DNA from: Sinomonas cyclohexanicum
Lineage (GTDB): Bacteria; Actinomycetota; Actinomycetes; Actinomycetales; Micrococcaceae
DNA length: 64,000 bases
NCBI RefSeq assembly: GCF_020886775.1
Contig: NZ_AP024525.1
Location: forward strand, 496,001 to 560,000
Direction of reading: 5' to 3'
Every line of letters starts with the position of its first letter. Position 1 is the stretch's first letter. The translations under genes and the position numbers were made by a program. Below the pieces are notes generated by a model. It was not told the DNA's origin. It saw only the letters and a program-made list of their open reading frames with translations, and ran no database searches. Shown here piece after piece: positions 26,702 to 38,722 of this stretch.

Positions 26702-27208
26702 TCAGGCGAGGGTCTGGCGCTTGCTTGAGATGACCCCCGTGTTGAAGCCCGCGAGGTGCAGGCCGCCGTGGAAGCGGGCGTGCTCGATCTTCACGCAGCG
26801 GTCCATGACCACATTCATCCCGGCCGCCTCGGCGTCCGCCGCGACCCCCTCGTGCCACGAGCCCAGCTGCAGCCAGATGGTCTTGGCGCCCACGGCCTTG
26901 GCCTCCTCGAGTACGCCGGGGAGGTCGTCGTGCTTGCGGAACACCTCGACCAGGTCCGGCGTCTCGGGAAGGTCAGCGAGCGAGGCGTAGACCGGCTGCC
27001 CCAAGATCGTCTTCACCACCGGGTTGACGAAGTACACCTTGTACCGCGTCGAGGACAGCAGGTACGTCGCGACGAAGTAGCTCGCGCGGCTCGGCTTGTC
27101 CGACGCGCCGACGATCGCGATGACCTTCGTGTCGTGCAGGATCGCCAGACGCTCGGGCGCTGTGGGGCCCACCCAGGCGCGCTCGGTGCTCTCGACGGCG
27201 GCGCTCAC
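26702..27208 (-). CDS. CoA-binding domain protein, copy 2, in the metY operon
   Basis: This 168-residue protein has the CoA-binding fold: VIAIVGASDKPSRASY, YKVYFVNPVVKTILGQPVYASL, DLVEVFRKHDDLPGVLEEAKAV and TIWLQLGSWHEGVAADAEAAGMNVVMDRCVKIEHAR. The GTG start overlaps the metY stop (GTGA) and has AAGGGAG upstream, so it is translated with metY. Association of this family with O-acetylhomoserine sulfhydrylase genes suggests a role in sulfur amino acid or CoA-thioester metabolism, but no activity is established. It shares WLQLG and VMDRC with the protein at 23266. Confidence 0.82.
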   Translation of the reverse strand: MSAAVESTERAWVGPTAPERLAILHDTKVIAIVGASDKPSRASYFVATYLLSSTRYKVYFVNPVVKTILGQPVYASLADLPETPDLVEVFRKHDDLPGVLEEAKAVGAKTIWLQLGSWHEGVAADAEAAGMNVVMDRCVKIEHARFHGGLHLAGFNTGVISSKRQTLA

Positions 27209-28572
27209 TTGTTCGCTCCCTTCACCGGCAGGGCGCACGCCTCGCCGTCGTACGTCGGAGCCGCGAATTCCTGCTCCAAGTCCTGGATCTCCTGCGAGGC
27301 GGCCAATGCCTGGTCCAGGTCCCAGATGATGTCCTCGACGTCCTCGAGCCCCACGGAGAGGCGGATGAGGTCCTCCGGGACGCCGGCCGCGACGAGCTGC
27401 TCCGCGGAGAGCTGCTGGTGCGTGGTCGAGCCCGGGTGCAGGACGAGGGTGCGCGCGTCGCCGATGTTGGCCAGGTGCGAGGCGAGCTGGAGTGCCTCGA
27501 TGAACCGGGCCCCGGCCTCACGGCCGCCCTTCACTCCGAAGCTGAACACCGACCCCACGCCGAGCGGCAGGAGCTGCTTGGCGAACTCGTGCTGCGGGTG
27601 CGAGGGCAGGCCCGCGTAGTTCACGTACGTGACCCGCGGGTCGGCCTCGAGCCACTCGGCCACGCGCTTCGCGTTCGCCAGATGCGCGTCCATGCGCTGC
27701 GGGAGCGTCTCGACGCCCTGCAGGAGCTGGAACGCGGACTGCGCCGGGAGCGACGGCCCGATGTCGCGCAGCTGCTCGGAGCGCAGCTTCGTGAGGAACC
27801 CGTACTCACCGAAGTTCCCCCACCACGAGACGTTGCCATAGCTGGGCACCGGCTCGGTCATGGTCGGGAAGTTCCCGTTGCCCCAGTTGAACGTGCCGGA
27901 TTCGACGACGACGCCGCCGAGCGTAGTCCCATGCCCGCCGAGGAACTTCGTGGCCGAGTGGATCACGATGTCCGCGCCGTGTTCGATCGGCCGCAGGATG
28001 TACGGCGGGGTGAGCGTCGAGTCGACCACGAGCGGAATGCCGTGCTCATGGGCGACGGCGGCGAGGCCGGCCAGGTCGGCGATGTCACCGGAAGGGTTGG
28101 CCACCACTTCGGTGTACAGGGCCTTGGTGTTCCCGCGCAGGGCTGCCTTGAAGTGCTCGGGGTCGGTCGAGTCGATGAACGTGGTCTCAACGCCGAAGCG
28201 GCGCAGGGTCACGTCGAGCTGGGTGATCGTCCCGCCGTACAGCTTCGAGGACGCGACGATGTGGTCCCCGGCCTGGGTGAGCGCGGCGAACGTGATGAAC
28301 TCCGCGGCCATGCCCGACGCCGTCGCGACCGCGCCGATGCCGCCCTCGAGCGAGGCGATGCGCTCCTCAAACGCCGCGACCGTCGGGTTGCCGATGCGGG
28401 AGTAGATGTTGCCGTACTTCTGCAGCGCGAAGAGGTTCGCGGCGTCGTCCGAGTCCTTGAACACGAACGAGGTGGACTGGTAGATCGGGACCGCGCGGGC
28501 GCCGTGCTCAGCGTCCGGCGTGCCGCCGGCGTGCAGGGCGCGGGTGCGGAACCCGAACTGGCGTTCGGCCAT
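27205..28572 (-). CDS. metY: O-acetylhomoserine sulfhydrylase
   Basis: This 455-residue PLP enzyme makes homocysteine from O-acetylhomoserine and sulfide. The Cys/Met metabolism family motifs are present: FGFRTRALHAGG, PIYQSTSFVF, YSRIGNPTVAAFEERIASLEGG, the PLP lysine in IHSATKFLGGHGT, and GPSLPAQSAFQLLQGVETLPQRM. The C-terminal part with HPGSTTHQQLS is typical of MetY and not of MetB. The ATG overlaps the sfnG stop (TGATG) and the stop overlaps the next gene. The three genes form one tight operon behind a SAM-I riboswitch, so high SAM should lower homocysteine synthesis. Confidence 0.93.
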   Translation of the reverse strand: MAERQFGFRTRALHAGGTPDAEHGARAVPIYQSTSFVFKDSDDAANLFALQKYGNIYSRIGNPTVAAFEERIASLEGGIGAVATASGMAAEFITFAALTQAGDHIVASSKLYGGTITQLDVTLRRFGVETTFIDSTDPEHFKAALRGNTKALYTEVVANPSGDIADLAGLAAVAHEHGIPLVVDSTLTPPYILRPIEHGADIVIHSATKFLGGHGTTLGGVVVESGTFNWGNGNFPTMTEPVPSYGNVSWWGNFGEYGFLTKLRSEQLRDIGPSLPAQSAFQLLQGVETLPQRMDAHLANAKRVAEWLEADPRVTYVNYAGLPSHPQHEFAKQLLPLGVGSVFSFGVKGGREAGARFIEALQLASHLANIGDARTLVLHPGSTTHQQLSAEQLVAAGVPEDLIRLSVGLEDVEDIIWDLDQALAASQEIQDLEQEFAAPTYDGEACALPVKGANK

Positions 28573-29750
28573 CAGGCGTTCGCCCCGGCGAAGGTGGTCA
28601 CCGGGAGCAGGTCGGTGCGCAGCTCGGTGCCGTTCTTGCGGGCAAGGTCCGCCTCGAGCTCGCGCACGATCGGAAGCACGTCGCGGCCGAACGCCTCGAC
28701 CTCCTCCTGGAAGTGCAGATAGCCGGTGAGGAAGAGGTTCACACCGATCTTCTTGTACTCGACGACCCGCTCGGCGATCTGCTCCGGGGTACCGATGAGC
28801 TTGGTACGGAAGCCGTCGTTGTACTGGACGAGGTCCTCGAACGTGGAGTCCTCCCACATGCCCTTGCCGTCCTTCGTGGACTGGCCGGCCTCCTTGACGG
28901 CGGCGGCGAAGCCCTCGACGGCCGGCTTGTGCGCCTTGGCGATGATCTCGCGCAGGGTGTCCTGCGCCTCCTTCTCCGTGTCGCGGGCGATCACGAAGCC
29001 GTTGAGCCCGAACTTCGGCTGGTGGGGCGCCGTGCGGCCGGACTCGGCGGCGGCCAGGACGCCGCGGATGTTGTCCTTGAACGGCTCGAGGTCGCGGCCG
29101 TTGGAGAAGTACCAGTCCGCGGTGCGGCCCGCGGCGGCCTGCGCGGCCGTGGAGTTGCCGCCGAAGAAGATCTCCGGGTGCGCGCGGCCCGGCACATCGA
29201 GCGGGGCCGGGCTGAGCGTGAAGTCCTTGATGTTGTAGTACTTGCCCGACTGCGAGAAGTCCTTCTGCGTCCACAGGCCGCGGAGCACGTTGATGAACTC
29301 CTCGGTTCGCACGTAGCGCTCGTCGTGCTCGAGCCACTCGAGGCCGAAGTTCACGAACTCGTCCTTGAGCCAGCCGGAGACGATGTTCACGGCCGCGCGG
29401 CCGCCGGAGAGGTGGTCCGCGGTGATGATGAACTTGGCGAGGACGCCGGGGTGCCACATGCCCGGGTGCACGGCGGAGATGACCTTGAGCCGCTCGGTCG
29501 CCATGAGCAGGGCGAGGCTGAAGGACGTGGCCTCATGCTGCTTGTCCGCGCCGTAGCTGGCGGCGTAGCGGGTCTGGGTGAGGGCGTACTCGAAGCCGGA
29601 GTCCTCCGCGATGCGGGCGAGCTTCTTGTTGTACTCGAACTCCCAATTGGTGCGCTGCTCGATCGTCGAGACGACGAGCCCGCCCGAGACGTTGGGCACC
29701 CAGTAGGCGAACTTGAGGGGTGTTTCCAGGTCGATCACGTGACCGGTCAT
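28572..29750 (-). CDS. sfnG: FMNH2-dependent dimethylsulfone monooxygenase SfnG-like
   Basis: This 392-residue luciferase-like monooxygenase matches SfnG in its key blocks: KFAYWVPNVSGGLVVSTIEQ, EYALTQTRYAASYG, GRAAVNIVSGWLKDEF, WLEHDERY, STFEDLVQYNDGF and GYLHFQEEVEAFG. SfnG uses reduced FMN and oxygen to cleave dimethyl sulfone into methanesulfinate and formaldehyde, a step in scavenging organic sulfur. The start at MTGHVIDLE follows AAGGAGCGCACC. The SAM-I riboswitch ends 59 bases upstream. Separate FMN reductases are needed, and two candidates lie at 34039 and 37250. The exact sulfone or sulfonate substrate is inferred. Confidence 0.85.
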   Translation of the reverse strand: MTGHVIDLETPLKFAYWVPNVSGGLVVSTIEQRTNWEFEYNKKLARIAEDSGFEYALTQTRYAASYGADKQHEATSFSLALLMATERLKVISAVHPGMWHPGVLAKFIITADHLSGGRAAVNIVSGWLKDEFVNFGLEWLEHDERYVRTEEFINVLRGLWTQKDFSQSGKYYNIKDFTLSPAPLDVPGRAHPEIFFGGNSTAAQAAAGRTADWYFSNGRDLEPFKDNIRGVLAAAESGRTAPHQPKFGLNGFVIARDTEKEAQDTLREIIAKAHKPAVEGFAAAVKEAGQSTKDGKGMWEDSTFEDLVQYNDGFRTKLIGTPEQIAERVVEYKKIGVNLFLTGYLHFQEEVEAFGRDVLPIVRELEADLARKNGTELRTDLLPVTTFAGANA

Positions 29751-29809
29751 GGTGCGCTCCTTACATGCGGGCGCGACGTGGGGCCCGCGCCGCGGCATCG
29801 GAGCACTCA

Positions 29810-29913
29810 CCATCGCTTCTGGCAGTAGCACCTGTGGCATCCCGCCGGGGATTCCGGCGGGGCCGTGGTTGCTGCGGCGTCACAGATCCAGATCTCTCGG
29901 CCGCTCGGGATGG
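29810..29913 (-). promoter_or_regulatory. SAM-I (S-box) riboswitch of the sfnG-metY operon
   Basis: Read on the minus strand, the element begins CCATCCCGAGCGGCCGAGAG and contains CTGTGACGCCGCAGCAACC, then GGTGCTACTGCCAG and the closing GATGG. P1 is CCATC/GATGG, P2 is GCGGC/GCCGC, the AGCAACC junction and the GGUGCUA segment of P4 are intact. Between the element and the sfnG start is a GCGCGGGC...GCGCCCGC hairpin that could be the expression platform. Confidence 0.88.
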
Positions 29914-29961
29914 TCGTTTCGATTGTCGCGAAACAGGGCGTAACGATGCAAATTATTCCGT

Positions 29962-29973
29962 CACACTCCGACA
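29962..29973 (-). promoter_or_regulatory. TGTCGGAGTGTG element upstream of the sfnG riboswitch
   Basis: This 12-mer lies 49 bases upstream of the SAM-I riboswitch. The identical 12-mer occurs once more, at 37029-37040, 58 bases upstream of the SAM-IV-like riboswitch and in the same orientation relative to it. The remaining bases of the 380-base gap up to 30131 show no gene. Confidence 0.4.
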
Positions 29974-30131
29974 TTCACCCTAAGCGCCGAATATGGTTCG
30001 ACGTCGCGCGCCGGCGACCGATCGCCGTCGTGCTTCGTAACCGGAAGCAACGCAACCACCGTGAGCCCGCGGGGAGGGGTCTAGGTTCGAGGCGTGCGCC
30101 CCCGCCGCGGCGCACGTGAAGGAGGGGAACC

Positions 30132-31373
30132 ATGGGAAGCACGACGCCGCCCGGCGCCTCGTACGCGGAGCTCACCGAACGTTTCGCGCCGGTCTTCGCC
30201 CGGATCGCCGAGGGCGCGCTCGAGCGCGAGCTGGGCCGGACGCTGCCGTTCGAGCACGTGGGCTGGCTCAAGGAGGCCGGATTCGGGCGGATCCGCGTGC
30301 CGGCTGAGTACGGCGGGTTCGGCGCCTCCATCGAGACGCTGGTGCGCTTGCTCATCGACCTCTCCGCCGCGGACTCGTCCGTGGGGCACCTCCTGCGTTC
30401 GCACTTCGCGTTCGTCGAGACCATCGCGCTGCAGGGCGACGCGTTCAGGGCGCGGTGGTTCGGCCGTGTCGTGGACGGCGTGATCTTCGGCAACGCCGCG
30501 ACCGAGCGCTCCGGCAACGCGCTCGGGACGGTCGCGACCCGGCTCGTGCCCGCCGCTGACGGCGGGTGGCTGCTGACGGGCGAGAAGTACTACACGACCG
30601 GGACGATCTTCGCCGACTACGTGGCCGTCATGGCGTCGCCCGAGCCGGGGCCCGACGGGGTGGCCAGGCGGCTCTACGCGCTCGCGCCGACCCGGCACGC
30701 CGGCGTCGAGATCCGCGACGACTGGGACGGGTTCGGGCAGCAGATGACCGGCACCGGGACCGCCGTGTTCCGCGACGTCCCGATTCCGGCCGAGGACGCC
30801 GTGCCGCGCACCGAGTCGACCACGCACGAGCCCGCGTTCCTCCAGCTCATGCTCCTGTCCGTGCTCGCGGGTATCGGCAAGGCGGTGGTGCGCGACGCGT
30901 CGTCGCTCGTGGCGCAGCGGACGCGCACGTTCTCCACCGGGTCCGGGCAGCTGTTCCGCGAGGACCCGCTCATCCTTGCGTTGGTCGGGCAGCTCGCCGC
31001 AAAGTCGTTCGCGGCGGAGTCCTCGGTGCTGGCGGCGGCCCGCGAGCTCGACGCGGCTCTGGCGCTCGGGCCCGAAGCCTCCGCCGAGGACCGGTACGCG
31101 AAGGGAGCGGTCGCCGTCGACCTCGCCCAGGTGGCGGTGCCGCCGCTCGTAGTCGACGCCGCGCAGCAGCTCTTCGACACTGCCGGCGCCTCCGCGGTGT
31201 CGCGCGGGAAGGCCCTTGACCGGCACTGGCGCAACGCCCGCACCGTTGCGACGCACAACCCCGTCGCGTTCAAGGCGCGCGGGCTCGGCGACTGGTTCGT
31301 CAACGGGGTCTCGCCGGTCGCGCTGCACAGCATCGGGGAGGCGACGGCAGCGGCGGCAGCGGCGGAACCCTAG
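30132..31373 (+). CDS. Acyl-CoA-dehydrogenase-fold monooxygenase, SfnB/DszC-like
   Basis: This 413-residue flavoprotein has the acyl-CoA dehydrogenase fold but lacks the usual catalytic Glu motif. Instead it has the DszC/SfnB-type end HWRNARTVATHNPVAFKARGLGDWFVNG. N-terminal RIRVPAEYGGFGAS, FGNAATERSGNALG and WLLTGEKYYTTGTIFADY form the flavin site. Such enzymes use reduced FMN and oxygen to oxidise thioethers, sulfoxides or amines. The ATG has AAGGAGGGG upstream. It is divergent from sfnG and close to FMN reductase genes, so an organosulfur substrate is likely. The natural substrate is not known. Confidence 0.8.
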   Translation: MGSTTPPGASYAELTERFAPVFARIAEGALERELGRTLPFEHVGWLKEAGFGRIRVPAEYGGFGASIETLVRLLIDLSAADSSVGHLLRSHFAFVETIALQGDAFRARWFGRVVDGVIFGNAATERSGNALGTVATRLVPAADGGWLLTGEKYYTTGTIFADYVAVMASPEPGPDGVARRLYALAPTRHAGVEIRDDWDGFGQQMTGTGTAVFRDVPIPAEDAVPRTESTTHEPAFLQLMLLSVLAGIGKAVVRDASSLVAQRTRTFSTGSGQLFREDPLILALVGQLAAKSFAAESSVLAAARELDAALALGPEASAEDRYAKGAVAVDLAQVAVPPLVVDAAQQLFDTAGASAVSRGKALDRHWRNARTVATHNPVAFKARGLGDWFVNGVSPVALHSIGEATAAAAAAEP

Positions 31374-31381
31374 CGGGTTCT

Positions 31382-31513
31382 CGTTGTGGGGTCTCTGGCG
31401 AGCGCTTGTGGGGTCCTTGGTCGTGCCAGGGACCCCGCAACGGGGTGCCGGGGACCCCGCAACGGGGTGCCGGGGACCCCGCAACGGGGTGCCAGGGACC
31501 CCGCAACGGGGCT
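31382..31513. repeat. GGGGTC iteron array A (22-bp period)
   Basis: Two reverse units (TTGTGGGGTCTCTGG, 31384 on; TTGTGGGGTCCTTGG, 31406 on) are followed by four forward units of 22 bases at 31426-31447, 31448-31469, 31470-31491 and 31492-31513, each with GGGACCCCGCAACGGGG. Reverse and forward units can fold on each other around a TCGTG loop. The array fills the whole gap between two convergent genes and reaches the stop codon of the regulator gene. Confidence 0.9.
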
Positions 31514-32501
31514 AGGCCCGCGCGAGGAGCTCCTCGCCCACCCGGCCGCGCTGGTAGAACACCTCGCGGCCGGCCCGCAGCGCCTCCGCGAGGCCCGAAT
31601 CGGCCAGCACCTTCAGGTGCGAGTTGACCGTCCCGGCGGCGAGGTCTAGCGCGCAGGCGAGCTGCGTCGTCGTCATCGGCACGTCGAGCTGCGCGAGGAT
31701 CTGCGCGCGCGTGCGCCCGAGCAGCCGTGAGACCGGCGACTCGCGCGTCTCCCGCGTCGTCTCCCACAGGCGCCCGACACCGCGCGGTGCGTACGTGATC
31801 GTCGGGACGAACGGCGCAATGTTCAGCACGAGCGTGGACGGCCACACGAACGCGTTCGGCACGAGGATCAGCCCGCTGCCGGGCGTGGGCAGGTCCGTGG
31901 CCTCGCAGCCGCGCGTGATCTCCAGGCCGGTGGGGGTGGGGCGCACGCTCGGGTGCAGGGTCTTGAAAACCTCCTGGATGCCGTACCGCGAGAGTTCCTC
32001 GAGGCGCGAGTCGATGTCCGCGAGCAGCACCGAGCGCAGCTTGGGCCAGTAGGGCTCGACGGCGGTCGCCCAGTACCAGCGCAGCGCGGCGACGATGCGG
32101 GGCACCGCCGCGTCGATGTCGGCGCGCAGTTCGTCGAGGGTTGCGCGCATGTACCCGGTGGGCTTGCGGTCCTCGAGGCAGTCCAGATCGCGCAGCCAGA
32201 GCTCGGCAGGGACCTCGCCCACCGCGGCGAGGGCCTCGGCGAACGTGTCCGCCCGGGTCGGGGTAGGCGTGAGCGAGTCGGCAATGTACCCCTTGGGCTG
32301 CACGAGCGTGGTCAGGATCCGCAGGTGCTCCCGCCCGAGCGGGTCCTCGCTCGCGGTGATGCGCTGCCGCGCCTCCGCGATCCACGGCCGGTGCAGCGGC
32401 GTTCCCGCCTGCAGCGCCCTCAGGCTCGTGACCGTCTCCCACAGCGGAGACGCCTCGAAATGGACCTTGGTGAGGTCCTCGCTCGTGAGCGTGATGAACA
32501 T
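31512..32501 (-). CDS. ArsR-type helix-turn-helix regulator with large N-terminal domain
   Basis: In this 329-residue protein the first 240 residues form an uncharacterised domain. The last 80 are a winged helix: PVSRLLGRTRAQILAQLDVPMTTTQLACALDLAAGTVNSHLKVLADSGLAEALRAGREVFYQRG. This layout occurs in actinobacterial ArsR-like proteins with a DUF5937-type N-terminus. The ATG at 32501 has TACGCT exactly six bases upstream and no ribosome binding site, so it may be leaderless. A perfect ATTCGG-N6-CCGAAT palindrome 38 bases upstream is a good autoregulatory operator. Its last codons overlap iteron array A. Confidence 0.82.
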   Translation of the reverse strand: MFITLTSEDLTKVHFEASPLWETVTSLRALQAGTPLHRPWIAEARQRITASEDPLGREHLRILTTLVQPKGYIADSLTPTPTRADTFAEALAAVGEVPAELWLRDLDCLEDRKPTGYMRATLDELRADIDAAVPRIVAALRWYWATAVEPYWPKLRSVLLADIDSRLEELSRYGIQEVFKTLHPSVRPTPTGLEITRGCEATDLPTPGSGLILVPNAFVWPSTLVLNIAPFVPTITYAPRGVGRLWETTRETRESPVSRLLGRTRAQILAQLDVPMTTTQLACALDLAAGTVNSHLKVLADSGLAEALRAGREVFYQRGRVGEELLARA

Positions 32502-32538
32502 GGATCCAGCGTAGGTTTCGCCCCGCGCGAGGGCGAGG

Positions 32539-32556
32539 ATTCGGGTACAACCGAAT
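32539..32556. promoter_or_regulatory. Operator palindrome ATTCGG-N6-CCGAAT
   Basis: A perfect 6+6 inverted repeat with a GTACAA spacer lies in the 93-base divergent gap between the ArsR-type gene and the hypothetical gene at 32595. It is the likely binding site of the regulator. Confidence 0.6.
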
Positions 32557-32594
32557 CGTTTTGCCGCGACGACGGGCGCCCCACACTCGATGGC

Positions 32595-33071
32595 ATGGCA
32601 ACGAACACTCGCACCGGAACCGCCTCCCGCACCACCTCCGCCGCGCGGGTCCCCGACCCCCACGCCCTCGAGTCCCGCAGCGCCGGCCACGCGCCGTCGC
32701 CCGCCGACGAGCGACTCCTCCACCCGCTGCGTCCCGCCCGGCGCCGCCCCGTCCGCGAACCGCACGGGCTCACCGCAGCGATCGGTGGGCGCACGACGGC
32801 GGCCGGTACCGCGCGGTCGCCCGCTCGCCTTCCGCACCGCGTGCGGCACGCCGGCGCCCCTCGCCTCGTGGCGCCGACAGCCGTCCCCGACCACTCGGGC
32901 GACCTCCTCGGGCTCCCCGACCTCTCTGGGCTCCGCCTCGGCTTGCGGAGAGCGTGGGCATGGCTGGCCCGCGAGGTCCGGGCATCCGCTCAGATGGACG
33001 CCCGGCTCCGCGCCCGGAGGGACGAGGATTCGGCCGCGATGGCCCGCGCGGGCGTGAACCGGCTGACGTGA
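32595..33071 (+). CDS. Hypothetical protein, Arg/Pro/Ala-rich
   Basis: This 158-residue frame has the strong G/C third-position bias of a real gene and starts MATNTRTGTASRTT. The C-terminal third (LGLRRAWAWLAREVRASAQMDARLRARRDEDSAAMA) looks like a genuine amphipathic helix. The middle is low in complexity and includes 24 bases (32784-32807) nearly identical to the left arm of the terminator hairpin at 26619. The gene may therefore have grown over a repeat, or the N-terminal part may not be translated. No ribosome binding site is clear, and I recognise no family. Confidence 0.5.
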   Translation: MATNTRTGTASRTTSAARVPDPHALESRSAGHAPSPADERLLHPLRPARRRPVREPHGLTAAIGGRTTAAGTARSPARLPHRVRHAGAPRLVAPTAVPDHSGDLLGLPDLSGLRLGLRRAWAWLAREVRASAQMDARLRARRDEDSAAMARAGVNRLT

Positions 33072-33138
33072 GGCAGCCTCTCCCGCTGCGGGGTGCTGTC
33101 CCCTTGACGTCGGCAGGCAGGGGCCCGACCCTTGCTGC

Positions 33139-33951
33139 ATGGACGTGCCCGAGCTGGAGTCCGTTGACGTTGACGGTCTCCGCATCGCGTACCGGCGGGC
33201 GGGCAGCGGCCCCGCGCTCGTGCTCCTGCACGGGGCGTATGAGGACAGCCGGATCTGGGAGCGCCAGCTCGCCGACCTCTCCGACGAGTTCACCGTCATT
33301 GCGTGGGATGCCCCGGGCTGTGGCGGGTCGGGGGACCTGCCGGAAGGCTTCGTCGGCACCTTCGGCGGACTGCTTGGTGGTCTCCTCGACGGGCTCGGCC
33401 TCACTGGCGGTGCCCGGGCGCACGTCCTGGGGATGTCGTTCGGCTCCGTGGTCGCACTCGACCTGTGGAAGGTCCGCCCGGATCTGCCCGCATCGCTGAT
33501 CCTCGCGTCAGCCTACGCCGGGTGGGCCGGATCGCTGCCGCCCGAGGAGGTCGAGCGAAGGTACGCCCAGGTGCTCGCCGAACTCGACAGGCCCGCCGCC
33601 GAGATCATCCCCGCGTGGCTCCCGAGCCTCTTCACCGACCGGGCGACGTCGGCGATGAAGGACTTCGCCTCCGCGGTCATGGCCGATTCTCGCCCGGCCG
33701 GTATGCGTGGGATCCTGCGCGTGGCTGGCCGCGCGGACTACCGGCCGGTCCTGCCGACGATCGCGATCCCGACCCTCCTGCTGTATGGGTCCGACGACGC
33801 GCGCTCGCCGGTCGCCGTCGGCGAGGCCCTGCGCGCGCAGATCCCGGCCGCGGAGCTCGTGGTCCTGCCGGGCGTGGGGCATATGAGCTTCGTCGAGGCA
33901 CCGGACGCGTTCGACGGCGCGGTGCGGCGCTGGCTCGTGGCGCACCTGTGA
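33139..33951 (+). CDS. Alpha/beta hydrolase
   Basis: This 270-residue protein has a complete alpha/beta hydrolase layout: oxyanion segment LVLLHGAYED, IAWDAPGCGGSG, nucleophile elbow LGMSFGSVVAL (Ser), the acid in LLYGSDDARSPV and the histidine in LPGVGHMSFVEAP. It is cytoplasmic, with no signal peptide. The ATG lies near GACCCT and lacks a Shine-Dalgarno. Ester, lactone or haloalkane substrates are all possible. Position among sulfur genes gives no firm clue. Confidence 0.85.
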   Translation: MDVPELESVDVDGLRIAYRRAGSGPALVLLHGAYEDSRIWERQLADLSDEFTVIAWDAPGCGGSGDLPEGFVGTFGGLLGGLLDGLGLTGGARAHVLGMSFGSVVALDLWKVRPDLPASLILASAYAGWAGSLPPEEVERRYAQVLAELDRPAAEIIPAWLPSLFTDRATSAMKDFASAVMADSRPAGMRGILRVAGRADYRPVLPTIAIPTLLLYGSDDARSPVAVGEALRAQIPAAELVVLPGVGHMSFVEAPDAFDGAVRRWLVAHL

Positions 33952-33970
33952 TGACATGGACCACAGGATG

Positions 33971-34017
33971 TTGATGCGTCAACTTATCAGGCTGTAGACT
34001 GTTAGTTGAATCATCAA
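33971..34017. promoter_or_regulatory. Two TTGA-N4-TCAA operators around a -10 element
   Basis: TTGATGCGTCAA (33971-33982) and TTGAATCATCAA (34006-34017) are identical in their outer eight bases and have centres 35 bases apart. TAGACT at 33995-34000, the likely -10 of the FMN reductase gene, lies exactly between them. This is a classic layout for a dimeric repressor, perhaps MarR- or HxlR-type. Confidence 0.65.
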
Positions 34018-34038
34018 CCACTTAGTCTGTGAGGCACC

Positions 34039-34740
34039 ATGTCCTGGTTCAAGAAGCTCTTCGGCAAGTCCGACTCGTCCGCCGCCCACCGCGCCGAGGC
34101 CCAGGCCGTGCCGACGGCTGCCGCCGAGGCCGCCGCCGTCGTGCGCGAGGGTGCCCCGCGCATCGCCGTGGTCACCGGCAGCATCCGCCCGGGCCGCAAC
34201 AACCTCCAGGTGGCCGAGTGGCTCGTGGCCCGCGCGAGCCAGCGCGGCGACGCCGTCTACGAGCTCGTCGACATCGACTCGTTCAACCTGCCCCTGCTCG
34301 ACGAGGCCTTCCCGGCCGCGTACGGCAACTACCAGGGTGAGCACACGAAGGCGTGGGCGGCGAAGGTCGCCCAGTTCGACGGCTTCGTATTCGTGACGCC
34401 CGAGTACAACCACTCGACGGCCCCGGCGCTCACCAACGCGCTCTCCTTCCTCAACGCGGAGTGGGCCAACAAGGCCGCCGGCATCGTGGGCTACGGCTCC
34501 GCGATGGGAGCGCGCGCCGTCGAGCACCTGCGCGGTGTCCTGTCCGAGCTCCAGGTTGCGCACGTGCAGAAGACGGGCATGTTCTCGCTCTTCACGGACT
34601 TCGAGGACTTCGCGACCTTCAAGCCGACCGAGCTGCAGGCCGCGTCGGTGGATCCCATGCTGGACCAGCTCATCTCCTGGACCGTCGCGTTCGCGAAGGT
34701 CCGCGAGGGCGAATTCGAGCTCGAGGCCGCCTCGGCCTGA
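34039..34740 (+). CDS. NADPH-dependent FMN reductase (flavodoxin-like)
   Basis: This 233-residue protein carries a flavodoxin-like NAD(P)H:FMN reductase domain after a 40-residue Ala-rich extension beginning MSWFKKLFGKSD. Flavin-binding parts are IAVVTGSIRPGRNNLQVAEW, the PEYNHSTAPALTNALSFLNAEW loop and GYGSAMGARAVEHLR. It could supply FMNH2 to SfnG and the DszC-like enzyme. The ATG follows TGTGAGGCACC. The promoter carries paired palindromes, so it appears to be repressed by a regulator not identified here. An azoreductase or quinone reductase role is also possible. Confidence 0.86.
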   Translation: MSWFKKLFGKSDSSAAHRAEAQAVPTAAAEAAAVVREGAPRIAVVTGSIRPGRNNLQVAEWLVARASQRGDAVYELVDIDSFNLPLLDEAFPAAYGNYQGEHTKAWAAKVAQFDGFVFVTPEYNHSTAPALTNALSFLNAEWANKAAGIVGYGSAMGARAVEHLRGVLSELQVAHVQKTGMFSLFTDFEDFATFKPTELQAASVDPMLDQLISWTVAFAKVREGEFELEAASA

Positions 34741-34893
34741 GACCCCGCAACGGTCCGGCAGGGACCCCGCAACGGTCGGCCAGGGACCCCGCAACGGTCC
34801 GGCAGGGACCCCGCAACGAAACGGACCTGACCCTTCACGCTGAGGGGTCAGGTCCCTTTCGTTGTGGGGTCCCTGGCGGCTTATTGCGGGGTC
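34741..34893. repeat. GGGGTC iteron array B (22-bp period)
   Basis: Four forward units with core GACCCCGCAACG start at 34741, 34763, 34785 and 34807, and two reverse units (CGTTGTGGGGTC at 34860, TATTGCGGGGTC at 34882) follow. All are spaced 22 bases. The inner forward and reverse units flank a perfect hairpin, so the whole centre can fold into one stem of roughly 30 base pairs. It begins directly after the FMN reductase stop and ends just before the acs stop. Confidence 0.9.
34823..34860. terminator. Hairpin at the centre of array B
   Basis: GGACCTGACCC (34823-34833) pairs perfectly with GGGTCAGGTCC (34845-34855), followed by CTTTCGTT. The stem extends outward through AACGAAA/TTTCGTT into the iterons. 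It can end transcripts from both convergent genes. Confidence 0.8.
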
Positions 34894-34898
34894 TTTGG

Positions 34899-36854
<1,956 letters not shown>

Positions 36855-36862
36855 GGACATCT

Positions 36863-36955
36863 CCATCGGTCCTGGCGGTAGCACCAGTGGCTCCTTGCAC
36901 GGAGTCAGGGTTGCTGCGGCGTCACTGAGCCAGATCTCTCGGCCGCTCGGGATGG
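36863..36955 (-). promoter_or_regulatory. SAM-I riboswitch of acs
   Basis: On the minus strand, CCATCCCGAGCGGCCGAGAG, CTCAGTGACGCCGCAGCAACC, GGTGCTACCGCCAG and closing GATGG reproduce the same core as the sfnG element, almost base for base in P1, P2 and the AGCAACC junction. Its 3' side is immediately followed by the GGAG of acs, so ligand binding can block ribosome access directly. Confidence 0.88.
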
Positions 36956-37028
36956 TCTTTTCAACTCTTGCGTGACGCACGCGCCCCGTGCAAAAGAAGC
37001 GTGGAGGCCGCTGTAACAAATGACATTG

Positions 37029-37040
37029 TGTCGGAGTGTG
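37029..37040 (+). promoter_or_regulatory. TGTCGGAGTGTG element upstream of the flavin reductase riboswitch
   Basis: Identical to the 12-mer at 29962-29973 on the other strand, and in the same orientation and similar distance relative to a SAM riboswitch. It also lies in the divergent region with acs. Confidence 0.4.
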
Positions 37041-37097
37041 TCCAGCTGGCTGTGGCAGGGGTGGACGCCCCCGCCGCCGCTTCCGTACTGTGAAACT

Positions 37098-37200
37098 CAG
37101 GATCAAGAGTCCCGGTGTGAAGCTCTGGCTGGCCGGGCGGCAACCCTCTCCCGTAGTGGGGTGCCCCAGATGAGGATCCGGCCGCGGTGGCCATCCGCGG
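37098..37200 (+). promoter_or_regulatory. SAM-IV-type riboswitch of the flavin reductase gene
   Basis: GGATC (37100-37104) pairs with GATCC (37175-37179). Inside are CCCGG...CCGGG, CGGCAACCCTCTCCC and AGTGGGGTGCCCCAGATGA, the signature order of SAM-IV. A further hairpin, CCGCGG...CCGCGG (37182-37200), follows P1, as expected for this class. It ends 49 bases before the start codon. Confidence 0.8.
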
Positions 37201-37249
37201 CAAGTACGGCGCCCGCACCGTGGGCGTCCGGCCAACTGCTGGAGGACAG

Positions 37250-37732
37250 ATGACCGCCACCCCGCTCGACCTTGTGACCGGTGCCGACCTGCGCCGGGCC
37301 ATGGGTTGCTGGGCCACGGGGATCGCAGTCATCACCACCTCGGACGGCGGCACCCTCGCGGGCCTCGTGAGCAACTCGTTCACGTCCATCAGCCTCGAGC
37401 CGCCGCTCGTCTCGTGGGCCGTGGACAAGAACTCGAGTTCCTACGAGACGTGGATCAACACTGACAACTACGCGGTGCACATCCTGTCCGAGTCCCACCG
37501 GGACCTCGTGGCGCGATTCGCGGCGAAGGGGACCGACAAGTTCGCCGGCCTCGACTGGGAGTCCGGCGTGCTCGGCTCGCCGATAGTGGCAGCCGACGTA
37601 CCGCGTGTCGAGTGTCGCCTCTGGCAGCAGGTGGACGCGGGGGACCACGTCATCCTGATCGGCGAGGTGGTCAGCATCTCGGACCAGGACGACTTCCGCC
37701 CCCTCACCAACCACGTGTACTGGGCAAAGTAG
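37250..37732 (+). CDS. Flavin reductase family protein
   Basis: This 160-residue protein has the FMN-binding split-barrel of two-component flavin reductases (HpaC/DszD type): MGCWATGIAVITTSDGGTLAGLVSNSFTSISLEPPLVSW near the N-terminus, NYAVHILSESHRDLVARFA and the substrate segment DHVILIGEVVSIS. These enzymes hand free FMNH2 to monooxygenases. The ATG has GGAGGACAG upstream. Placement behind a SAM-IV-like riboswitch ties it to sulfur starvation and makes it the best partner for SfnG and the DszC-like enzyme. Confidence 0.88.
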   Translation: MTATPLDLVTGADLRRAMGCWATGIAVITTSDGGTLAGLVSNSFTSISLEPPLVSWAVDKNSSSYETWINTDNYAVHILSESHRDLVARFAAKGTDKFAGLDWESGVLGSPIVAADVPRVECRLWQQVDAGDHVILIGEVVSISDQDDFRPLTNHVYWAK

Positions 37733-37810: not shown

Positions 37811-38722
37811 GTGGCCATCGACCTGCTCGCCCCGCTGCGGACCAGGCTCCGCCTGACATTCGCGGGCCAGTCCGAGGGGATCCCGGCATGGGAGACCGCC
37901 CTCGAGGACGGCGACGACGCGGGCTTCTTTGCCCCCGACTCCGCCGTCTGGGCCGTCCACGGCTCCATGACGCCGATCGCCGGCGGCATTCGCGCGCTCC
38001 TGACCCAGGCCCTCCACCCCGGGGTGCTGGCGGGGGTCGCCGACCATTCCAACTACCGCGCGGATCCTCTCGCCCGGCTCGCCGGGACCATCCGCTGGAT
38101 CTTCACCGTGACCTTCGGGGACACGACGGCGGCCCGCGGCGCGTGCGCGTGGGTGCAGCGCAGGCACGTCCCCGTGGAGGGCGAGTACGTCACCGGTGCT
38201 GGGGTGCACGAGCACTACTCCGCCAACGATCCGGCGCTCGCCGAATGGGTCCACATCGCCTTCACCGATGCACTCCTGCGCACCTACGAGGCGTTCCACG
38301 GCCCCGTGCCCGGCGGCGCCGACCGCTACGTGTCCGAGTGGGCCGTGGCGGGCGAGCTCATGGGCGTCCTCGACCCGCCGCGCACCGAGGCCGCGCTGCG
38401 GTCCCGGATCCAGGCGTACGACGCCGCGGGGCAGCTCGCTGGCGGACCTCGCGTCGACGACGTGGTCGCCTTCCTCCGCCGGCCGCCCCTCGACCCGCTC
38501 CTCGGGCCCGGATACGCGGCCCTGTTCGGTGCCGTCCTGACGACCATGCCGCGGCGGCACCTCGACCTCCTGGGGCTGCGGCCTCCCCATCTGGGCCCCG
38601 TGCCGCTCCCGGTGAGGGGCGCGGCGAAGGCGACGCTCGCCGTCGTGGGCCGCGCCCTCGACCCGATGCCGCCCAGCGAGGCCGCCGCCCGCCGCCGTCT
38701 GGCCCGGCTCGGCCTCCTCTGA
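37811..38722 (+). CDS. Oxygenase MpaB family protein (DUF2236)
   Basis: This 303-residue protein has the conserved DUF2236 blocks: VWAVHGSMTPIAGGIRALLTQALHPGVLAGVADHS with its histidines, WVQRRHVPVEG, YSANDPALAEWVHIAFTDALL and the terminal PPHLGPVP segment. Members are heme-type oxygenases such as latex-clearing protein and fungal MpaB, though most bacterial ones are uncharacterised. The GTG start has TAGGCT exactly six bases upstream, so a leaderless transcript is likely. It stands alone. Confidence 0.85.
   Translation: MAIDLLAPLRTRLRLTFAGQSEGIPAWETALEDGDDAGFFAPDSAVWAVHGSMTPIAGGIRALLTQALHPGVLAGVADHSNYRADPLARLAGTIRWIFTVTFGDTTAARGACAWVQRRHVPVEGEYVTGAGVHEHYSANDPALAEWVHIAFTDALLRTYEAFHGPVPGGADRYVSEWAVAGELMGVLDPPRTEAALRSRIQAYDAAGQLAGGPRVDDVVAFLRRPPLDPLLGPGYAALFGAVLTTMPRRHLDLLGLRPPHLGPVPLPVRGAAKATLAVVGRALDPMPPSEAAARRRLARLGLL

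What the first reader, a model, noticed from the sequence alone, without database searches (positions are those of the whole stretch)
29810..37200. Three SAM riboswitches of two classes bracket one sulfur-scavenging locus
Two SAM-I elements (29810-29913 and 36863-36955, minus strand) and one SAM-IV-like element (37098-37200, plus strand) lie within 7.4 kb. They precede sfnG-metY-CoA-binding, acs and a flavin reductase. Genes between encode a DszC/SfnB-like monooxygenase and an FMN reductase. The arrangement suggests one SAM-sensing regulon that joins organosulfur oxidation, flavin supply, acetyl-CoA supply and homocysteine synthesis. Mixing two structural classes in one locus is unusual.
Basis: partly seen in the sequence, partly recalled or inferred. 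Interest (0 to 1): 0.85.

Follow-up and report, generated by a model that had tools for sequence, protein, structure and literature searches.

The report
Compact SAM switches run sulfur scavenging
A soil actinobacterium controls one cluster of sulfur-scavenging genes with three RNA switches of the kind that senses the metabolite SAM; two of them belong to a slimmed-down form that lacks one of the standard helices and recurs across actinobacteria, so the cluster is real and orderly rather than a freak of one genome.

Summary
Rfam models find SAM-IV at 37101-37212 (+, 91.6 bits), SAM-I at 36860-36958 (-, 48.1) and SAM-I at 29807-29916 (-, 44.1, 0.3 under the cut-off). They precede a flavin reductase, an acetyl-CoA synthetase paralogue (acsS) and an overlapping sfnG-metY-CoA-binding operon. 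The genome is a Sinomonas; these are its only two SAM-I hits, while four more SAM-IV hits sit elsewhere. In the genus, 21 of 21 SAM-I hits (12 of 15 genomes) lie within 12 kb of a SAM-IV; outside it, mixed loci are a minority.

The SAM-I elements score low because they lack helix P4: in 82 of 82 elements compared, 3-4 nt join the PK-1 strand to P1, and PK-1 covaries. P4-less SAM-I was found in 14 of 17 actinomycete families sampled (not a random sample). Published SAM-clan forms combine PK-1+P4, PK-1+PK-2 or P4+PK-2; this is PK-1 alone. In acsS leaders the Shine-Dalgarno overlaps P1, so SAM should block translation directly, a mode already reported for SAM-I in Actinobacteria.

Best reading: a SAM-repressed organosulfur regulon, SAM-IV guarding mostly housekeeping genes and compact SAM-I guarding scavenging paralogues. 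SAM binding is untested. New variant of a known kind.

The parts
29807..29916 (-). SAM-I riboswitch aptamer (P4-less form), leader of the sfnG-metY-CoA-binding operon
   Evidence: RF00162 44.1 bits (cut-off 44.4), E 2.8e-7 in 20 kb; P4 absent
36860..36958 (-). SAM-I riboswitch aptamer (P4-less form), leader of acsS; the 3' strand of P1 overlaps the Shine-Dalgarno
   Evidence: RF00162 48.1 bits; GATGG(P1)-AG-ATGTCC-ATG
37101..37212 (+). SAM-IV riboswitch aptamer, leader of the flavin reductase
   Evidence: RF00634 91.6 bits; PK-2 partners CCGTA (37151-37155) and TACGG (37205-37209) present
28572..29750 (-). sfnG, FMNH2-dependent dimethylsulfone monooxygenase
   Evidence: TIGR04021 608 bits; start ATG 29750 with SD AAGGAG
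27205..28572 (-). metY paralogue, O-acetylhomoserine sulfhydrylase; its ATG overlaps the sfnG stop (TGATG)
   Evidence: (scanned from 28536): TIGR01326 580 bits; start ATG at 28572
26702..27208 (-). CoA-binding domain protein (CoA_binding_2); its GTG overlaps the metY stop (GTGA)
   Evidence: (scanned from 27172): PF13380 138 bits; likely start GTG at 27208
30132..31373 (+). SfnB/DszC-like flavin monooxygenase (acyl-CoA dehydrogenase fold)
   Evidence: TIGR04022 287 bits, below the equivalog cut-off 430.9; PF08028
31512..32486 (-). DUF5937 plus ArsR-type HTH protein, possible transcriptional regulator
   Evidence: PF19361, PF12840, PF01022
33139..33951 (+). alpha/beta hydrolase
   Evidence: PF12697 77 bits
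34039..34740 (+). NADPH-dependent FMN reductase family protein (MsuE/SsuE-like role inferred)
   Evidence: PF03358 118 bits; no NCBIfam match
34899..36854 (-). acsS, acetyl-CoA synthetase paralogue specific to the SAM-I locus
   Evidence: TIGR02188 777 bits (scanned from 36872); start ATG 36854 chosen by spacing from GGAG, an in-frame ATG at 36860 is possible too
37250..37732 (+). flvR, short flavin reductase
   Evidence: PF01613 126 bits; SD GGAGGA at 37241-37246
37811..38722 (+). MPAB/Lcp-family oxygenase, neighbour of flvR; no riboswitch of its own found
   Evidence: PF09995 144 bits; next to flvR in 12 of 14 Sinomonas stretches

Best explanation
The locus is a SAM-repressed organosulfur-scavenging regulon of Sinomonas. 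When SAM (hence methionine and sulfur) is low, three leaders are open: the SAM-IV leader lets a flavin reductase be made, the divergent SAM-I leader lets acsS be made, and the second SAM-I leader lets the overlapping sfnG-metY-CoA-binding operon be made. The oxygenases release sulfur from dimethyl sulfone-type compounds, MetY fixes reduced sulfur into homocysteine and frees acetate, and AcsS can turn that acetate back into acetyl-CoA for more O-acetylhomoserine. When SAM is high it binds each aptamer and locks P1; in the acsS leader the 3' strand of P1 overlaps the Shine-Dalgarno, so translation is blocked directly with no separate expression platform. The two SAM-I aptamers are a compact form, recurrent in Actinomycetes, that has P1, P2 with a K-turn-like loop, P3 and pseudoknot PK-1 but neither P4 (as in canonical SAM-I) nor P5/PK-2 (as in SAM-IV). 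Shown by sequence: the elements, their conservation and covariation, the missing P4, the P1/Shine-Dalgarno overlap, the paralogue split. Inferred: SAM binding, the OFF direction, acetate recycling. Unresolved: how the sfnG leader (Shine-Dalgarno 49 nt beyond P1) and the SAM-IV leader pass on binding.
For: Rfam hits. Both SAM-I hits of the 4.41-Mb genome are here; SAM-IV gives 5 hits, the other four upstream of a SufS-like desulfurase-family gene, a second metY, a metabolite/H+ symporter-type transporter and a small ORF without a family match. Genus: 21 of 21 SAM-I hits within 12 kb of a SAM-IV. 82 of 82 SAM-I elements have a 3-4 nt linker where P4 should be. Pair counts: 99.0% of cells paired in 81 sequences, four of five measures reached by 0 of 500 shuffles and one by 25 of 500; PK-1 pair 26-110 is UA 40, UG 18, CG 20, other 3. 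In 22 diverse sequences 10 pairs change on both sides, 4 of the 5 PK-1 pairs among them, and 0 of 500 shuffles reach any of the five measures (such shuffles ignore relatedness, but partners slid by 1-3 columns pair only 28-50%). acsS leaders: ATG 8-10 nt after P1 with GGAG straddling the P1 end in 7 of 7 genomes where SAM-I directly precedes acsS. AcsS: copies 67-91% identical in 14 of 18 genomes searched, absent from the four without an acs-linked SAM-I; separate from the other Acs with 100/100 support. No intrinsic terminator-like site on the sense strand after any of the three aptamers. [quoted passage not shown]
Against: No binding or expression data exist. One SAM-I is below the Rfam cut-off. 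In the 81-sequence set the P1 and P3 pairs never vary, so they say nothing either way. Folding does not show a switch for the sfnG leader: its Shine-Dalgarno is mostly paired with or without P1 in all 12 leaders compared. The window's acs leader does not fold into the aptamer at minimum energy and is no more stable than shuffles (z -0.76; the pseudoknot is not modelled). In G005, G009 and G010 acsS is present without a detected SAM-I in front of it. Only 54 of 82 elements have a candidate start codon 2-16 nt after P1, by a permissive test. The genome has no alkanesulfonate monooxygenase above the model's cut-off, so the last step to sulfite is unassigned, and acetate recycling is only an argument from chemistry.
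Confidence: 0.78

Rival explanations
1. Ordinary co-location: SAM-IV-flvR is an independent core gene of the genus, and the SAM-I organosulfur locus merely sits beside it; the two classes have no joint logic.
For: SAM-IV-flvR is present in G007 and G011, which have no SAM-I hit and none of the other nine locus genes within the 19 kb fetched. In 17 of 19 other-genus genomes the fetched SAM-I stretch has no SAM-IV.
Against: The pair is kept on one stretch in all 12 Sinomonas genomes with SAM-I, mixed places recur elsewhere (G019, G020, G045, G050; L099), and flavin reductase homologues stand under SAM-I inside such loci in G025 and G054 (28-31% identity), so a flavin reductase fits this regulon functionally.
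Confidence: 0.3
2. The P4-less elements are degenerate SAM-I aptamers that have lost SAM control.
For: Low Rfam scores; 5 of 21 hits in the genus fall under the cut-off.
Against: Compensatory changes in PK-1, P1, P2 and P3 across families and invariant core positions; P4 is absent in 82 of 82, not patchily; placement near start codons.
Confidence: 0.06
3. acsS is not an acetyl-CoA synthetase but a CoA ligase for a sulfur-containing or other small acid made during scavenging.
For: A separate clade with group-specific changes beside the acid-pocket motifs, WVT[G->A]H and WWQ[T->S]E; among the genomes searched it is found only with the SAM-I locus.
Against: Above the acetate--CoA ligase equivalog cut-off; the V, T, V and W that I recall as lining the acetate pocket are kept (14 of 14 for two motifs, 13 of 14 for the first, one unread).
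Confidence: 0.3

Closest known systems
SAM-I riboswitch (S box, RF00162)
   Same: Same clan core: three-way junction P1-P2-P3 with GCAACC and GGUGC segments, K-turn-type P2, PK-1; Rfam assigns them here.
   Different: No P4: 3-4 nt instead of a helix between the PK-1 strand and P1. P4-bearing SAM-I does exist in three of the actinomycete families sampled (9 loci).
SAM-IV riboswitch (RF00634)
   Same: 37101-37212 is an ordinary member (91.6 bits). Like the compact SAM-I it has PK-1 and no P4 (PMC6890682, parts 1 and 2 of 4 read).
   Different: SAM-IV adds P5 and PK-2; in the acs leader the start codon follows P1 by 8 nt, leaving no room for P5 and PK-2.
SAM-I/IV variant (RF01725)
   Same: Third published combination in the clan.
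   Different: It has P4 and PK-2 and lacks PK-1 and the P2 internal loop (PMC6890682; PMC2864571, passages), the opposite of the compact SAM-I.
Direct translational SAM-I regulation in Actinobacteria (Barrick and Breaker 2007, PMC2258182)
   Same: RBS built into the 3' side of P1.
   Different: The passages read do not describe a missing P4 or this gene cluster.
DMS/dimethyl sulfone assimilation (sfnG, msuEDC, Dms1-3; PMC13352529, passages)
   Same: SfnG, an acyl-CoA-dehydrogenase-fold monooxygenase and an FMN reductase occur here.
   Different: No MsuD/SsuD above cut-off in this genome; control by SAM riboswitches and linkage to metY and acsS do not appear in the passages read.

Membership tests
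SAM-I (RF00162), element 36860-36958 | covariance score at or above the curated cut-off | tested here: met
   48.1 against 44.4 bits
SAM-I (RF00162), element 29807-29916 | covariance score at or above the curated cut-off | tested here: not met
   44.1 against 44.4 bits; called SAM-I-type on structure and conservation, not on the cut-off
SAM-I | P1, P2 with internal K-turn, P3 and PK-1 | tested here: met
   pairs and covariation; K-turn by sequence only (GA...UGA retained)
SAM-I | helix P4 between PK-1 strand and P1 | tested here: not met
   linker of 3 nt in 78 and 4 nt in 4 of 82 elements, both window elements included; so 'P4-less SAM-I-type', not canonical SAM-I
SAM-I | binds SAM | not testable with these tools
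   needs in-line probing or ITC
SAM-IV (RF00634), element 37101-37212 | covariance score over cut-off, with P5 and PK-2 | tested here: met
   91.6 against 38 bits, full-length match 1-116; CCGTA/TACGG PK-2 partners
SAM-IV, the two SAM-I elements | P5 hairpin and PK-2 after P1 | tested here: not met
   Rfam's best clan member is SAM, not SAM-IV; in the acs leader the start codon begins 8 nt after P1
Acetyl-CoA synthetase (TIGR02188) | score over equivalog cut-off | tested here: met
   776.6 against 724.95 bits
Acetyl-CoA synthetase | acetate as best substrate | not testable with these tools
   enzyme assay needed
SfnG dimethylsulfone monooxygenase (TIGR04021) | score over equivalog cut-off | tested here: met
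   608 against 383 bits
SfnB (TIGR04022) | score over equivalog cut-off | tested here: not met
   287 against 431 bits; call it SfnB/DszC-like

The most novel reading that the evidence does not exclude
The actinomycete P4-less SAM-I elements are a fourth peripheral architecture of the SAM clan (PK-1 alone, without P4 or PK-2): the minimal natural scaffold of the SAM-I/SAM-IV core, possibly the form from which SAM-IV (PK-1 plus PK-2, no P4) could arise or to which SAM-I was reduced, kept because P1 doubles as the ribosome-binding site. In this lineage the two classes divide the work, SAM-IV mostly on housekeeping genes and compact SAM-I on scavenging paralogues, perhaps with different SAM set points.
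Probability: 0.35. Interest if true: 0.65.

Novelty: new variant of a known kind. Interest (0 to 1): 0.48.

Why it matters
It gives a natural test of what the periphery of the SAM-I/SAM-IV core is for: a recurrent form that keeps only PK-1. It bears on whether SAM-I and SAM-IV are related by loss and gain of P4 and PK-2 or arose separately. It also explains why Rfam scores these elements near or below threshold (5 of 21 in this genus fall under it), so SAM regulons in actinomycetes may be under-annotated, and it names an acetyl-CoA synthetase paralogue as a sulfur-regulon gene, which points to acetate recycling during O-acetylhomoserine sulfhydrylation.

Tried and rejected
Intrinsic terminators as expression platforms: none on the sense strand after the aptamers; 3 terminator-like sites in the region, all on the + strand and none after the SAM-IV, against 2.4 expected. 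A thermodynamic switch for the sfnG leader: the Shine-Dalgarno is mostly paired in both states in all 12 leaders; the strong hairpin of the window's own leader (z -2.60) is not shared in the same form by the relatives I read, so I claim no mechanism there. A class swap SAM-I to SAM-IV at an orthologous flavin reductase: suspected from divergent SAM-I/SAM-I pairs in other genera, rejected because the reductases under SAM-I in G025 and G054 are only 28-31% identical to this one. My first guess that the family is Microbacteriaceae was wrong: contig length and hit spacing identify G008 as Sinomonas atrocyanea; that Sinomonas belongs to Micrococcaceae is recalled. R1 matches beyond the loci fetched there were not classified. 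In one search the script mis-scored L091, L092, L096, L100 and L109; the first four read as P4-less, L109 as P4-bearing. Row L070:15133-15267 was dropped from alignment A1 (81 of 82 used). L080:3727-3839 (45.2 bits) turned up later and is not in the 82. Tree: 14 locus copies (own genome plus 13 of the 14; G019's left out) and 17 others; one row unreadable (L142) and several further Acs-like matches (extra G020 and G034 copies, the 36-41% group) were not included. Weak Rfam hits to plastid, snoRNA and microRNA families are taken as chance.

Literature: 10 searches were run, with passages or parts of some papers read; nothing seen described a P4-less SAM-I or this locus. Trausch 2014 and Weinberg 2008 were not held, so prior description cannot be excluded.
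Full report
What is there. Rfam covariance models confirm all three elements: SAM-IV at 37101-37212 (+), SAM-I at 36860-36958 (-) and SAM-I at 29807-29916 (-), the last 0.3 bits under its cut-off. Downstream are a flavin reductase (start 37250), an acetate--CoA ligase (start 36854 by spacing) and sfnG (start 29750). sfnG, metY and the CoA-binding gene overlap (TGATG at the first junction, GTGA at the second), so one leader could control all three by translational coupling (inferred).

Where it comes from. The genome is one contig of 4.41 Mb. A same-genus genome, G008, has a contig of 595,159 bases with the same riboswitch positions as Sinomonas atrocyanea NZ_JAUSRH010000001.1, so the window is from a Sinomonas species.

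Regulon within the genome. RF00162 gives only these two hits in the genome; RF00634 gives five. The other four SAM-IV elements precede a SufS-like desulfurase-family gene (261 bits, below the model's cut-off), a second metY that passes the bifunctional O-acetylhomoserine/O-acetylserine sulfhydrylase model (762 bits, cut-off 703), a metabolite/H+ symporter-type transporter (394, below cut-off 443), and a small ORF without a family match, followed by another. So SAM-IV sits on the metY that looks housekeeping and SAM-I on the one in the scavenging locus.

Conservation in the genus. Of 15 genomes searched, 12 have SAM-I (21 hits, 16 over the cut-off) and 15 have SAM-IV. All 21 SAM-I hits lie within 12 kb of a SAM-IV. 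G007 and G011 have SAM-IV-flvR without SAM-I or the other nine locus genes in the 19 kb fetched, so SAM-IV-flvR looks like the more stable part and the SAM-I locus accessory. In G005, G009 and G010 acsS is present but no SAM-I was found in front of it.

Conservation in the family. Both classes occur in 49 of 60 family genomes (matches at E up to 0.001). I fetched SAM-I-rich stretches from 19 genomes of other genera (20 loci, chosen because they were rich in SAM-I hits). Genes following SAM-I there include MetN-like ABC ATPases, NtaA/DmoA-type monooxygenases, SfnB-like monooxygenases, MetY, AcsS and ABC binding proteins (one representative of each new group was scanned). SAM-IV lies in the fetched stretch in 2 of the 19 (G019, G020). 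Comparing the rows listed (each list cut at 150 rows) adds G045 and G050, at least 4 of 37 non-Sinomonas family genomes with SAM-I. Outside the family, L099 (family f22) has a divergent SAM-I/SAM-IV pair 164 nt apart. So the mixed locus is constant in Sinomonas and a minority pattern elsewhere.

The compact SAM-I form. In 82 of 82 SAM-I elements (21 from the genus, 61 from other genera) the linker between the PK-1 strand and CGATGG is 3 nt (78) or 4 nt (4); P4 is missing. In 81 aligned sequences the five P1 and six P3 pairs never vary, while PK-1 and P2 covary (four of five measures unmatched by 500 shuffles, the count of pair types matched by 25). Among 34 loci from wider relatives, 25 are P4-less (21 scored by the script; L091, L092, L096 and L100 read) and 9 have a 28-34 nt stretch that fits P4 (L101-L108 by the script, L109; P4 pairs are visible in the Rfam alignment of L103). 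The P4-less loci fall in 14 families (f1, f7, f8, f13-f16, f18, f22, f35, f36, f44, f51, f58), the P4-bearing in 3 (f21, f38, f45). This sample is not random: 28 of the 34 were brought or ranked by a model built from P4-less sequences, the rest were top RF00162 hits. Twenty of the 25 P4-less loci plus the two window elements (alignment A2) give 10 pairs with changes on both sides, 41 such cells against 7.8 in shuffles, with none of 500 shuffles reaching any of the five measures. RF00162 scores of the 16 P4-less elements are 45.7-72.1 bits and of the four P4-bearing ones 71.2-92.4, which explains the weak window scores.

How it compares. PMC6890682 (parts 1 and 2 of 4 read) states that SAM-IV, compared with SAM-I, lacks P4 and adds PK-2 with P5, and that SAM-I/IV lacks PK-1 but has P4. 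The compact form is the remaining combination, PK-1 alone. [quoted passage not shown] the mechanism is thus known. A missing P4 was not mentioned in what I could read.

Mechanism. acsS leader: P1 ends in GATGG, followed by AG, ATGTCC and the ATG at 36854, so the Shine-Dalgarno GGAG straddles the end of P1. All nine leaders of this type in the genus (seven before acsS, one before a MetN-like gene, one before an unassigned ORF) have GATGGAG and an ATG 8-10 nt after P1. Over the 82, 54 have an ATG or GTG of an ORF of at least 80 codons 2-16 nt after P1, 8 at 17-39 nt and 20 none that near; over 125 pattern matches in the named records, 67 have one 4-40 nt after the CGATG and 58 do not (a permissive test). 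The sfnG leaders differ: the Shine-Dalgarno is 33-49 nt beyond P1 and mostly paired in both modelled states, so the platform there is unresolved. For SAM-IV I infer translational control only from the absence of a terminator.

The acetyl-CoA synthetase. The genome has a second Acs, 56% identical, elsewhere. In 18 genomes searched, copies 67-91% identical occur in 14, on the SAM-I locus contigs, while G001, G006, G007 and G011 have only the 55-57% type at E up to 1e-100. Fourteen locus copies and 17 others (rows left out are told under tried and rejected) lie on two sides of one branch with 100/100 support. The locus group carries WVTAHTYE (13 of 14 read) and WWQSE (14 of 14) where the others have W[VI]TGH[ST]Y and WWQTE. 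The V, T, V and W that I recall as lining the acetate pocket of the Salmonella enzyme are kept. That O-acetylhomoserine sulfhydrylation frees acetate is textbook knowledge, so recycling by AcsS is a natural but untested reading.

Pathway. SfnG, an acyl-CoA-dehydrogenase-fold monooxygenase and flavin reductases fit the oxidation of DMS/DMSO/dimethyl sulfone as worked out in Acinetobacter (PMC13352529, passages). No alkanesulfonate monooxygenase passes its cut-off in this genome; the only match at E up to 1e-20 is SfnG itself at 143 bits, so the final desulfonation step is open.

Verdict. Filed as a new variant of a known kind.

Noticed in passing
window 31403-31530 and 34713-34900: Arrays of about 22-nt repeats (GGGACCCCGCAACGG...) lie in both convergent intergenic regions of the locus, the second followed by a strong terminator-like hairpin at 34823-34855.
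   Followed up: no
whole genome G000: No SsuD/MsuD-type alkanesulfonate monooxygenase passes the model's cut-off; the step from methanesulfinate or methanesulfonate to sulfite is unassigned.
   Followed up: partly
window 31512-32486: A DUF5937 plus ArsR-type HTH protein is found inside the locus in 10 of 14 Sinomonas stretches and could be its transcriptional regulator.
   Followed up: no
L099, 1501-1590 (-) and 1755-1869 (+): In a genome of another family (f22) a compact SAM-I and a SAM-IV also stand divergently, 164 nt apart, as in the window (142 nt).
   Followed up: no
   Followed up: partly
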